From positions 151,158 to 215,157 of the forward strand of contig NZ_LTAQ01000069.1 in NCBI RefSeq assembly GCF_001590835.1: a stretch of 64,000 nucleotides of DNA, written 5' to 3'. This document shows positions 7,608 to 47,508 of the stretch, piece by piece. Each line of letters begins with the position of its first letter. The stretch's first letter is position 1. The position numbers and the translations under genes are program-made. Below the pieces are notes generated by a model. It saw only the letters and a program-made list of their open reading frames with translations. It searched no databases and had not been told where the DNA came from. Source of the DNA: Bacillus gaemokensis (lineage in GTDB: Bacteria; Bacillota; Bacilli; Bacillales; Bacillaceae_G).

Positions 7608-7870
7608 CAAAAAACTCGCCCCTTAAAAAAGGGACGAGTTATATTTACCCGCGATACCACCCTAGTTCATACATGTAGAAATATCTATATGTATGCGGCT
7701 TTGCAACGTACAACATGATACGTGTTCCTTGTAACGGGGGACGACCGGTAAGAACTTACTACATCGTTCGGTTCTACTTCTCGGAGATGATTTTCGGTTA
7801 CGCACTGAACATTGGCTTTCAGCAAAATGCCAACTCTCTGGGGAACAGCTTTATAACGTACTCGTTCTCT
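7608..7870 (-). promoter_or_regulatory. T-box riboswitch upstream of brnQ, isoleucine specifier
   Basis: Read on the minus strand, the leader has the AGAGAG kink-turn motif near its 5' end. The specifier region GAAAATCATCTCCGAG (about 7780-7795) contains AUC whichever of two adjacent triplets is used. The antiterminator T-box is AGGGTGGTATCGCG (7650-7663), one base from the consensus AGGGTGGNACCGCG. A terminator with arms AACTCGTCCCTT/AAGGGGCGAGTT and a T-run lies at 7608-7640. Uncharged tRNA-Ile is expected to stabilise the antiterminator and switch on brnQ. Confidence 0.92.
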
Positions 7871-7926
7871 TCAATGAATTTTGTTCAAGTATTCTGACAG
7901 TATTTTCACATGTTTTTTTCATAAAG

Positions 7927-24121: not shown

Positions 24122-24967
24122 ATGATTTCTATTGGATTAACAGGCTGGGGAGATCACGACTCTTTATATACAGATTCCTATGAAAATAGAAATAAATTGC
24201 GAACATATAGTGAGTATTTTCCCATTGTTGAAGTTGATAGTTCATTTTATGCCATGCAACCAGCTCGTAATTATACGAAATGGGCTGCTGAAACACCAAA
24301 AGATTTTTCATTTGTCGTCAAAGCATATCAAGGGATGACTGGACATCTACAGGGAGACATTCCATTTTCAAATATTGATGAGATGTTTGAATCATATAAA
24401 CAATCGATTCTTCCGCTTCAAGAAGCACATAAATTAAAGGTAATTTTATTTCAATATCCACCGTGGTTTGATTGTCAAAAGAAAAATGTAGATTTACTTC
24501 GTTATACAAAAGAGAAAATGGGAGACTTTCCATGTGCAATTGAGTTTCGAAATCAAACATGGTTTTATCCAAATATGCACGATAAGACATTGCAATTTTT
24601 AGAACAAGAAAAGTGGATTCATACAATCTGTGATGAACCACAAGCTGGAATCGGGTCTGTTCCACTTGTATTAGAGGCAACTCATTCTGAAATGGCATTG
24701 ATACGTTTTCATGGTCGTAATGTTCATGGATGGCTTGATAAAGGAGAAAATTGGCGAGCGGTCCGGTGTTTATATCGCTATAATAAAAAGGAACTAGGAG
24801 AATGGGTGGAACGATTGGAAACAATGCAGAAAAAAACGAAGAATATATATGTATTATTTAATAATAATTCCGGTGGAGATGCTGCTGATAATGCGAAGCA
24901 ACTGATGGAAATGATGCACATTACATATGGAGACCCGAAACCAGAACAATTAAACCTATTTGAATAA
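24122..24967 (+). CDS. yunF: DUF72 family protein (YunF-like)
   Basis: This 281-residue soluble protein shows DUF72 features: ISIGLTGWGDHDSLY at the start, YSEYFPIVEVDSSFYAMQP, the FQYPPWFDC strand, CAIEFRNQTWF and a C-terminal LFNNNSGGDAADNAKQL before QLNLFE. The fold is a TIM-barrel of unproven activity; a nuclease or sugar-phosphate role has been suggested for relatives. The start at 24122 follows GGGAGG; the open frame upstream of it extends through non-coding sequence. It ends at a strong terminator shared with the small RNA on the opposite strand. Confidence 0.88.
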   Translation: MISIGLTGWGDHDSLYTDSYENRNKLRTYSEYFPIVEVDSSFYAMQPARNYTKWAAETPKDFSFVVKAYQGMTGHLQGDIPFSNIDEMFESYKQSILPLQEAHKLKVILFQYPPWFDCQKKNVDLLRYTKEKMGDFPCAIEFRNQTWFYPNMHDKTLQFLEQEKWIHTICDEPQAGIGSVPLVLEATHSEMALIRFHGRNVHGWLDKGENWRAVRCLYRYNKKELGEWVERLETMQKKTKNIYVLFNNNSGGDAADNAKQLMEMMHITYGDPKPEQLNLFE

Positions 24968-24970
24968 TAT

Positions 24971-25080
24971 AAAAAGAAAAACACTGTACAAACAGGGGGA
25001 ATGTACAGTGTTTTTCTATATGAAAAAGAGGGGTAACAATGTTACTGAGCGTTTGGTTGATTCATCAATTGTTGGCTTCA
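24971..25080 (-). ncRNA. Candidate Fur-regulated small RNA (FsrA-like)
   Basis: A near-consensus promoter reads leftward: TTGACA (25110-25115), 17-bp spacer, TATCAT (25087-25092). The predicted RNA of about 110 nt starts near 25080. It has two small 5-bp hairpins (TTGAT-GA-ATCAA and GTAAC-ATT-GTTAC), then an unpaired TTACCCCTCTTTTTC stretch. It ends in a perfect 15-bp terminator stem (GAAAAACACTGTACA) whose loop is TTCCCCCTGTT. The Fur box over the promoter and the exposed C-rich segments, which can pair with Shine-Dalgarno sequences, are hallmarks of FsrA-class iron-sparing RNAs in Bacillus. A 21-codon frame near its 5' end lacks a ribosome site. Identity with FsrA is inferred. Confidence 0.6.
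24976..25016. terminator. Bidirectional terminator of yunF and the small RNA
   Basis: Perfect 15-bp arms (24976-24990 and 25002-25016) enclose an 11-nt loop. Both strands show a T-rich exit. Confidence 0.92.
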
Positions 25081-25086
25081 TATTAA

Positions 25087-25115
25087 ATGATAATGGTTAT
25101 CATTATCATTGTCAA
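25087..25115 (-). promoter_or_regulatory. Promoter with Fur box for the candidate small RNA
   Basis: GATAATGGTTATCATTATC at 25089-25107 matches the 19-bp Fur consensus in 17 positions. It spans the -10 box and spacer of the TTGACA-17-TATCAT promoter on the minus strand, so bound Fur should block transcription when iron is sufficient. Confidence 0.75.
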
Positions 25116-25144
25116 TAGTTTTTCATAAATAAAATAAAAAATAA

Positions 25145-25173
25145 TTTGTCCCGCTATTTGCAGGCAATAATAC
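25145..25173 (+). repeat. bcr1-like 5'-end fragment
   Basis: TTTGTCCCGCTATTTGCAGG and the following CAATAATAC match the first 29 bp of the full bcr1-like copies. It then joins directly to the decayed transposase sequence, so one element has interrupted or replaced part of the other. Confidence 0.75.
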
Positions 25174-25412
25174 GGACGTAATTTCTTTTCTATGAAATCA
25201 AAATGATTGGTAGTTTTAATCGCATGAAGGAAATGATCTTGTGGAACGAATTCTTTTGTGAAAATTTTCAAACACTCATCGAGGAGATTGTTTCATGCAC
25301 CCCTCATAGTAAAATCTCTTCGTTTCCTCTTGTGAATCAGTGTTAACAGATAAGATGTGAGATTCAGATACAAAAACAGGCTGTGGAGAAAACTTTCTCC
25401 ACAGCCTGAAGA
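25174..25412 (-). pseudogene. Decayed left end of an IS1182-like element with transposase start
   Basis: Read on the minus strand, the segment has the CAGGCTGTGGAGAAA hairpin (25377-25408) and the untranslated leader. The transposase start then follows: a methionine, then a stop at codon 5, then FTKEFVPQDHFLHAIKTTNH and FDFIEKKLRPYYC. The same hairpin, leader and EELVPQDHFLRTIE sequence occur intact at 63794-64000. Only about 45 codons remain before the match breaks into a bcr1 fragment. Confidence 0.85.
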
Positions 25413-25419
25413 ACAACGC

Positions 25420-25614
25420 TTAGAGCTCTTCTTTTTCAGTTACATATTGTTGTAAATCAAATGGAGTTATTTCTTGAATGAACTCCTTTGAGATAAGTGA
25501 TTGAACGAGTGTGCTTTCTGAAATTGTAGCACCTGTTTTCTTTTGATATGCCTGTTTCAATAAGCCGAGTTTTTCTGCCGTTTCTTTTGGTAATTCGATT
25601 GTTAATGTGTTCAT
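25420..25614 (-). CDS. Small ribbon-helix-helix-like protein
   Basis: This product of about 64 residues opens with NTLTIELPKETAEKLGLLKQ, the strand-helix pattern of ribbon-helix-helix DNA-binding proteins and antitoxins. A second helix (SESTLVQSLISKEF) and an acidic tail follow. The start is the second of two tandem ATGs after GGGGGAGA. No toxin gene accompanies it: its downstream side is the IS remnant, eight bases after the stop, so a partner may have been lost. DNA binding is inferred from the fold pattern only. Confidence 0.65.
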   Translation of the reverse strand: MNTLTIELPKETAEKLGLLKQAYQKKTGATISESTLVQSLISKEFIQEITPFDLQQYVTEKEEL

Positions 25615-25683
25615 CATTTCTCCCCCTTATTACTAGAGTACCACTACAAAATAGGAGAAACAAGGAAAGAGAATATGAAACAT

Positions 25684-47261: not shown

Positions 47262-47285
47262 GATGGAGAAAATAGAATATCGGTC

Positions 47286-47508
47286 TATCTTCGGGGCAGG
47301 GTGAAAATCCCGACCGGCGGTGATGAACAATGCTTTTTTGTTCTAAGCCCGCGAGCCGTTAAGGCAGGATTTGGTGTGATTCCAAAGCCGACAGTACAGT
47401 CTGGATGGGAGAAGATGGAGGTTCAAGCGTTCAAAAAAGATAAGTATTTGAACGTCTGTTTGATGTGCCTAAAATTCTCCCTTTGTGTAATACGCAAAGG
47501 GTTTTTTT
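47286..47508 (+). promoter_or_regulatory. FMN riboswitch (RFN element) with terminator
   Basis: The aptamer shows the conserved blocks in order: TCTTCGGGGCAGGGTGAAA, TCCCGACCGGCGGT, AGCCCGCGAGC, GGTGTGATTCCAAAGCCGAC and AGTCTGGATGGGAGAAGATGG, spanning about 47286-47420. The expression platform ends in CCCTTTGTGT-aat-ACGCAAAGGG with seven T residues (47479-47508). FMN binding should terminate transcription before ribU. Confidence 0.96.

What the first reader, a model, noticed from the sequence alone, without database searches (positions are those of the whole stretch)
24971..25115. Candidate Fur-repressed small RNA of the FsrA class hidden between yunF and an IS remnant
Seen: a minus-strand TTGACA-17-TATCAT promoter whose spacer and -10 lie under a 17/19 match to the Fur consensus, then about 110 bases ending in a perfect 15-bp terminator stem. 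No plausible protein is encoded. Two short hairpins leave TTACCCCTCTTTTTC single-stranded, and the terminator loop is TTCCCCCTGTT. Known: FsrA is the Fur-controlled, C-rich RNA that spares iron in B. subtilis by pairing with ribosome sites. Inferred: this is its B. cereus-group counterpart or a functional analogue.
Basis: partly seen in the sequence, partly recalled or inferred. Interest (0 to 1): 0.85.

Follow-up and report, generated by a model that had tools for sequence, protein, structure and literature searches.

The report
Iron-starvation small RNA targeting aconitase
Next to the gene yunF lies a short, apparently non-coding RNA gene with an iron-repressor site on its promoter, whose conserved C-rich loop can pair with the ribosome site of the iron enzyme aconitase in related bacteria, so it probably saves iron when iron is scarce.

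Summary
The same unit sits directly after yunF in five other genomes (Ectobacillus panaciterrae, Bacillus sp. 165, three unnamed). There the terminator stem covaries while the loop CAU(U/C)CCCCCUGUUUGUA is almost fixed. The loop is the probable seed. In Bacillus sp. 165 it has one perfect 15-nt complement in the genome: the Shine-Dalgarno region of aconitase (AcnA). AACAGGGGG precedes the aconitase start in 5 of 5 genomes with this RNA and in 1 of 18 genomes where it was not found; aconitase ranks 1st to 3rd among 56-71 start regions per genome. Best reading: a Fur-repressed iron-sparing RNA that blocks translation of aconitase and perhaps other mRNAs.

It works like FsrA but does not pass as FsrA: no hit to the Rfam FsrA model, no significant sequence similarity, different neighbours. 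The 'IS remnant' is a conserved tyrosine-recombinase gene. Expression, Fur binding and repression are untested, and the window organism's own aconitase gene was not available.

The parts
25110..25115 (-). -35 hexamer TTGACA
25087..25092 (-). -10 hexamer TATCAT, 17 nt from the -35
25089..25107 (-). Fur box GATAATGATAACCATTATC (18/19 to the recalled consensus GATAATGATAATCATTATC), over spacer and -10
   Evidence: in the five relatives the best match has 1 mismatch in four and 2 in G004
24970..25081 (-). small RNA, about 110 nt; start inferred from promoter spacing (about 25080), end from the terminator
   Evidence: model R1 matches 24970-25081, (the window row is one of the model's own sequences)
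25057..25068 (-). short 5' hairpin UUGAUGAAUCAA
   Evidence: fold; not conserved in the alignment of relatives
25033..25045 (-). second short hairpin GUAACAUUGUUAC
   Evidence: fold; not conserved in the alignment of relatives
25022..25033 (-). mostly single-stranded C-rich stretch CCCCUCUUUUUC (CCCCUCU also in Ectobacillus and Bacillus sp. 165, CCCCCUAU in G004, absent in the two short forms G003 and G005)
24975..25017 (-). terminator hairpin, 15-16 bp stem, then a T-rich tail; stem covaries among relatives
24987..25003 (-). conserved terminator-loop region CAUUCCCCCUGUUUGUA, the proposed seed for mRNA pairing
24122..24967 (+). yunF-like gene (DUF72), convergent neighbour, same place in the five relatives
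25420..25617 (-). DUF3924 gene, upstream neighbour
   Evidence: relatives by resemblance

Best explanation
This is a Fur-repressed, trans-acting iron-sparing small RNA. When iron is plentiful, Fur-Fe covers the -10 and spacer and keeps it off (inferred from the box). When iron falls, the ~110-nt RNA is made. The C-rich loop of its own terminator, CAUUCCCCCUGUUUGUA, pairs with ACAAACAGGGGG-type sequence over the Shine-Dalgarno site of aconitase mRNA and blocks translation of this Fe-S enzyme. A second free stretch, CCCUCUUUUUC, may reach other G-rich ribosome sites. Shown here by computation: promoter, Fur box, terminator hairpin, conservation in place, covarying stem with nearly fixed loop, and complementarity to aconitase in five relatives. 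Inferred: transcription, Fur binding, repression, and that the window organism's own aconitase gene carries the site.
For: Fur box and promoter. Same unit beside yunF in five genomes of one GTDB family; of 80 fetched yunF loci, the only two with the loop motif downstream are the only two with a Fur box there (G003-G005 are not among the 80). Terminator stem: 5 of 15 pairs changed on both sides (7 of 500 shuffles as many), 95.1% of 82 cells paired and covariation score 0.333 (0 of 500 shuffles each), while CAU, CCCCC and UUGUA of the loop are invariant in all six rows. In Bacillus sp. 165 the 15-mer TCCCCCCTGTTTGTA, allowing one mismatch, occurs twice, both exact: in the RNA and, as complement, 8 nt before the aconitase ATG; the gene is AcnA. 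Loop pairing ranks aconitase 1/69, 1/56, 3/68, 2/71, 1/57 among start regions. AACAGGGGGR-N3-10-ATG occurs 35 times in the five genomes (8 for the reversed pattern); aconitase is among them in all five and is the only such gene, since Bacillus sp. 165 has just two sites and the other (DUF1885) is not among the sites of G003 or G005. AACAGGGGG at the aconitase start: 5/5 with this RNA, 1/18 without. Aconitase is a reported FsrA target in B. subtilis (PMC8464778 and PMC12871923, passages).
Against: No expression data. The window genome and close kin are not held, so the target was tested only in relatives. The five genomes are related, so the aconitase result is not five independent events; G003 and G005 have identical aconitase start regions. 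Part of the pairing is simply a G-rich Shine-Dalgarno: among 49 of 316 background starts with a run of 5 or more G, 0, 5, 3, 3 and 2 pair as well as aconitase in G001-G005. With the full-length RNA aconitase ranks only 2/69, 2/56, 9/68, 8/71, 1/57, and with the part before the loop it is unremarkable (37/69, 25/56, 43/68, 25/71, 15/57). sdhC is not convincing: loop ranks 20/69, 4/56, 7/68, 4/71, 1/57, and 47, 25, 6, 13 and 2 of the 49 G-rich starts pair as well. One of the five stem measures is not raised: further pair types, 414 of 500 shuffles as high. Neobacillus drentensis (G027) has AACAGGGGG at aconitase with no such RNA found. The other AACAGGGGG genes that could be named by Pfam (DUF1885, TauE, a solute-binding protein) are not iron enzymes and many were not identified. 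Whether a loop of 11-13 nt inside the terminator can form a long duplex with mRNA is unproven.
Confidence: 0.75

Rival explanations
1. It is a divergent true orthologue of FsrA that has moved to a new place in the chromosome.
For: Same promoter architecture, C-rich free stretch before the terminator and C-rich terminator loop as FsrA of B. haynesii; the Ectobacillus form shares ACCCCTCTATC with FsrA (15 of 1000 shuffles as good), and one of three group B RNAs compared aligns to FsrA (5/1000; the other two 354 and 303/1000).
Against: Window RNA versus FsrA 337/1000, and the other three relatives tested 326, 346 and 779/1000. No Rfam FsrA match at E<=10. Model R1 does not match the FsrA RNA. Different neighbours. 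Short shared C-rich words are expected if both evolved to pair with ribosome sites.
Confidence: 0.3
2. The hairpin is only the two-way terminator of yunF and the Fur box serves another gene.
For: The hairpin begins 7 bp after the yunF stop, and its plus-strand 3' arm ends in TTTTTCT, so it may also end yunF transcription.
Against: The loop is conserved while the stem changes. Of 80 yunF loci only the two with a Fur box have this loop. Promoter and Fur box point toward the hairpin, with no gene in between, and the consensus scan lists no plus-strand promoter in 24900-25450.
Confidence: 0.07
3. A small mRNA for a 21-residue peptide (MKPTIDESTKRSVTLLPLFFI).
For: Open frame from ATG at 25081; ATG or GTG at the same place in three of five relatives.
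Against: No Shine-Dalgarno, start codon at about the inferred transcription start, frames of different length and sequence in those three (33 or more, 9 and 23 codons), no start there in the other two.
Confidence: 0.03

Closest known systems
FsrA (B. subtilis; Rfam RF02273)
   Same: Fur box over a sigma-A-type promoter, short RNA (84 nt against about 110), C-rich free stretch and C-rich terminator loop, aconitase as target (length and targets from PMC8464778 passages)
   Different: No covariance-model match, no significant sequence similarity for the window RNA, beside yunF rather than a DUF1797 gene (ykuJ by recall), most conserved element is the terminator loop
IsrR (Staphylococcus)
   Same: Fur-repressed RNA with C-rich single-stranded regions acting on iron-enzyme mRNAs (PMC9410917, abstract and passages)
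   Different: IsrR has two Fur boxes and three C-rich regions, and a poorly conserved terminator (same passages); here one box, and the terminator loop is the conserved part. No sequence comparison with IsrR was run
RyhB / PrrF
   Same: General logic: Fur-repressed RNA that lowers iron-enzyme synthesis (passages)
   Different: Hfq-dependent and of Gram-negative bacteria (passages); the PrrF model gives only a 15.0-bit match, over the Fur box and promoter. RyhB was not compared
   Same: Fur box, C-rich stretches; CCCC in the terminator loop in six of the nine with a recognised terminator
   Different: Longer (122-143 nt), different loop, other neighbours in the five loci read for genes (L089, L091, L092, L094, L095); FsrA-model hits of 28.5, 22.9 and 19.2 bits, all under cut-off, at the RNA in three of the nine genomes

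Membership tests
FsrA (RF02273) | Covariance-model score at or above gathering (80 bits) | tested here: not met
   No FsrA match at E<=10 in 24900-25250; 0 of 19 family genomes over cut-off; positive control B. haynesii 104.1 bits
FsrA (RF02273) | Sequence similarity to a true FsrA above shuffles | tested here: not met
   Window RNA 337/1000; Ectobacillus relative borderline, 15/1000
FsrA (RF02273) | Synteny at ykuI-ykuJ | tested here: not met
   B. haynesii FsrA lies beside a DUF1797 gene (ykuJ by recall); window RNA lies beside yunF
FsrA (RF02273) | Fur-box promoter | tested here: met
   binding not tested
FsrA (RF02273) | C-rich single-stranded region and Rho-independent terminator | tested here: met
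   (prediction)
FsrA (RF02273) | Represses iron-enzyme mRNAs including aconitase, with FbpA/B/C for some | not testable with these tools
   Complementarity to aconitase in five relatives; no expression test; Fbp proteins were not searched
Fur-repressed iron-sparing small RNA (functional class) | Fur box on promoter, non-coding RNA, complementarity to start regions of iron-protein mRNAs | tested here: met
   By sequence, for aconitase, in five relatives; the window organism's own targets were not available; sdhC not convincing
Fur-repressed iron-sparing small RNA (functional class) | Iron-dependent expression and target repression | not testable with these tools
   No transcript or protein data for this locus
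SurA, LhrC, RsaE/RoxS (RF02377, RF00616, RF01820) | Score at gathering | tested here: not met
   20.3 of 100, 20.5 of 110, 16.9 of 79 bits

The most novel reading that the evidence does not exclude
A separate, non-orthologous iron-sparing RNA family took FsrA's place in this branch of Bacillaceae and moved its main seed into the loop of its own transcription terminator, keeping aconitase as target. That would be convergent evolution of the same circuit within one family of bacteria.
Probability: 0.5. Interest if true: 0.62.

Novelty: new member of a known kind. Interest (0 to 1): 0.52.

Why it matters
An iron-starvation response that includes lower levels of some iron enzymes has been reported for a Bacillus cereus isolate under metal stress (PMC9938188, section 16 and passages), where FsrA is mentioned once, for B. 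subtilis. This locus offers a concrete RNA, a seed and a first target for such a response in the likely B. cereus-group host (organism inferred, not told). If right, it gives the iron-sparing circuit a new, easily tested example in which the same target is reached by an RNA not demonstrably related to FsrA.

Tried and rejected
Rfam at gathering over the whole window found only a T-box and an FMN riboswitch; at E<=10 the segment gave 18 weak hits (SurA E 0.0017 but 20.3 of 100 bits, aligned mainly over the terminator; LhrC, STnc370, RsaE and others), judged chance. An order-wide pattern survey (397 genomes) found 1 match, G003; its gap range was too narrow and missed G001 and G002, which were in the set and have the RNA, so it is not a survey. 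A wider pattern found 3 of 26 genomes, all three already known, 0 in the 23 others; it cannot see the short form. Exact search of viral contigs: 0. Plasmids and phages: nothing but a 40-base promoter match in one B. velezensis record. The 1-mismatch 15-mer list also gave starts of a membrane protein in G003 and G005 and an unknown protein in G004; not used as support. Letter-shuffled loops put aconitase first in 1/300, 0/300 and 1/300 for G001, G002 and G004, the three genomes tested, but in G004 the true loop itself ranks it second. R1 background is high for terminators (an unrelated place in L091 scores 36.8 bits), so R1 was used only for the cross-test with FsrA and group B. Iron-starvation array paper on B. 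anthracis Sterne (PMC2742718, term search only): no mention of aconitase or small RNA. Searches for print on such an RNA in the B. cereus group (listings only) showed none; most subscription papers are not in that library. Aconitase controls left out: G007 and G014 (start not in the fetched piece) and second aconitase copies of G002 and G026; G010, G015 and G017 were not searched; for G028 no ATG start was found and a wider stretch was used. In one search background starts with weak Shine-Dalgarno (script threshold) were dropped, leaving 68, 55, 67, 70 and 56.

Full report
What is there. On the minus strand, TTGACA and TATCAT are 17 nt apart at 25115-25087, overlain by the Fur box GATAATGATAACCATTATC at 25107-25089, one mismatch from the recalled consensus. 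About 110 nt follow to a hairpin with a 15-16-bp stem; the whole RNA folds at -26.9 kcal/mol, z -5.85. Upstream on this strand are DUF3924 and a tyrosine recombinase; on the other side lies the convergent DUF72 gene yunF. The recombinase, by resemblance, also lies near the RNA in four of the five relatives, so 'IS remnant' is wrong. A 21-codon frame exists but has no ribosome site and is not conserved as a peptide.

Conservation. No genome is held for the window, and the best YunF relative found in genome contigs is only 71% identical, so the window's own group appears to be missing from the collection (inference). In the genomes of the two best YunF hits, DNA search found promoter plus RNA at 79% (Ectobacillus panaciterrae) and 74% (Bacillus sp. 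165) identity, both directly after yunF. Among 19 genomes of that GTDB family, 14 matched at E<=0.001, but nine of these only over the Fur-box promoter. Reading them, five (G001-G005) carry this RNA beside yunF and nine carry a different Fur-boxed RNA, group B. Of 80 yunF loci, two have the loop motif downstream and the same two have a Fur box. Local alignment of the window RNA with G001-G004 beats all 1000 shuffles in each case (G005 not tested there).

What is conserved. The middle of the RNA varies and is nearly absent in the two short forms (70 nt). Kept are the Fur box (1 mismatch in five of six, 2 in G004) and the terminator loop CAU(U/C)CCCCC(C)UGUU(U)GUA. The stem around it changes by pairs: 5 of 15 pairs changed on both sides (7 of 500 shuffles as many), 95.1% of 82 cells paired and covariation score 0.333 (0 of 500 each); the number of further pair types is not raised (414 of 500) (six sequences, partly one lineage). 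A plain terminator would keep the stem and let the loop drift. The C-run of the loop is unpaired with mean probability 0.86-0.93 in all six.

Target. The 15-mer TCCCCCCTGTTTGTA, searched without regard to genes and allowing one mismatch, occurs twice in the genome of Bacillus sp. 165, both exact: in the RNA, and as complement in UACAAACAGGGGGGAAUUUCAAAAUG, the start of aconitase (AcnA). In the other four genomes the aconitase start reads AACAGGGGGGA. Duplex energies of the loop against start regions rank aconitase 1/69, 1/56, 3/68, 2/71 and 1/57; sdhC ranks 20/69, 4/56, 7/68, 4/71 and 1/57 (background from four 20-kb stretches per genome). With the full RNA aconitase ranks 2/69, 2/56, 9/68, 8/71 and 1/57, and the part before the loop alone does not favour it. 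Because any C-run pairs with a G-rich ribosome site, I compared with the 49 of 316 background starts that have five or more G in a row: 0, 5, 3, 3 and 2 do as well as aconitase. Letter-shuffled loops seldom put aconitase first (1/300, 0/300, 1/300 in the three genomes tested; in one of them, G004, the true loop ranks it second). Genome-wide, AACAGGGGGR-N3-10-ATG occurs 35 times in the five genomes against 8 for the reversed pattern. I read 30 of the 35, two of which open no real frame; aconitase is the one gene present in all five, which is settled because Bacillus sp. 165 has only two sites and all sites of G003 and G005 were read. AACAGGGGG at the aconitase start is seen in 5/5 genomes with the RNA and 1/18 without; the exception, G027, shows no such RNA by pattern. 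The genomes are related, so this is supportive and not an independent count.

Mechanism. Inferred: Fur-Fe blocks the promoter; at low iron the RNA is made and its terminator loop pairs over the aconitase ribosome site and stops translation, sparing Fe-S clusters. The free stretch CCCUCUUUUUC is a second possible pairing site. Transcription, binding and repression are not shown.

Relation to known RNAs. FsrA is an 84-nt Fur-controlled RNA with sdhCAB, citB, gltA, lutABC, dctP and leuCD as targets (PMC8464778, passages). As control, the Rfam model finds FsrA in B. haynesii at 104.1 bits. It finds nothing in the window segment at E<=10 and nothing over cut-off in 19 family genomes. Model R1, built from the six RNAs, lists no match at the FsrA RNA of L138 up to E 10; among the ten group B loci, two matches fall at or near the RNA, 20.6 bits in L092 (E 0.16) and 18.0 bits in L094 (E 0.66), no better than background. 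Window RNA versus FsrA alignment is chance (337/1000), though the Ectobacillus form shares ACCCCTCTATC (15/1000) and one of three group B RNAs compared resembles FsrA (5/1000). So: works like FsrA (likely), is FsrA (not shown). IsrR of staphylococci is a further functional parallel, described as not orthologous to FsrA (PMC9410917, passages).

Novelty. Searches in the held library (listings) showed no report of this RNA; subscription papers are mostly missing. A B. cereus isolate under metal stress shows an iron-starvation proteome with lower GltB, sulfite reductase and NarH (PMC9938188, section 16; organism); aconitase is not named there (term search).

Noticed in passing
G018 has a second such place (L101) without a recognised terminator. 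Possibly unrecognised FsrA relatives outside the Rfam family.
   Followed up: partly
L001:5018-5105 and L001:5797-5822: Bacillus sp. 165 has further Fur-box-like sites (up to 4 mismatches) to the right of its RNA promoter, the last just before a lipoprotein-like gene; no recombinase gene was seen there.
   Followed up: no
window 7627-7883 (-) and 47283-47420 (+): T-box leader and FMN riboswitch at gathering score.
   Followed up: no
window 25377-25408 (-): A 14-bp terminator-like hairpin with T tail directly after DUF3924.
   Followed up: no
L240 (G003) and L149 (G005): A membrane protein start (MKKIVKL... / VKKIVKL...) also has AAACAGGGGGGA before its start codon in both genomes; possible extra target.
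   Followed up: no
L235, L245, L253, L257 (G003) with L256, L248, L252, L238 (G005): Four further genes keep AACAGGGGG before the start in this close pair of genomes, e.g. a TauE-like transporter and a solute-binding protein; could be further targets or plain ribosome sites.
   Followed up: no
L247 (G002): One AACAGGGGG start in Ectobacillus looks like biotin synthase, an Fe-S enzyme, by recall; the 110-residue piece gave no Pfam family.
   Followed up: no
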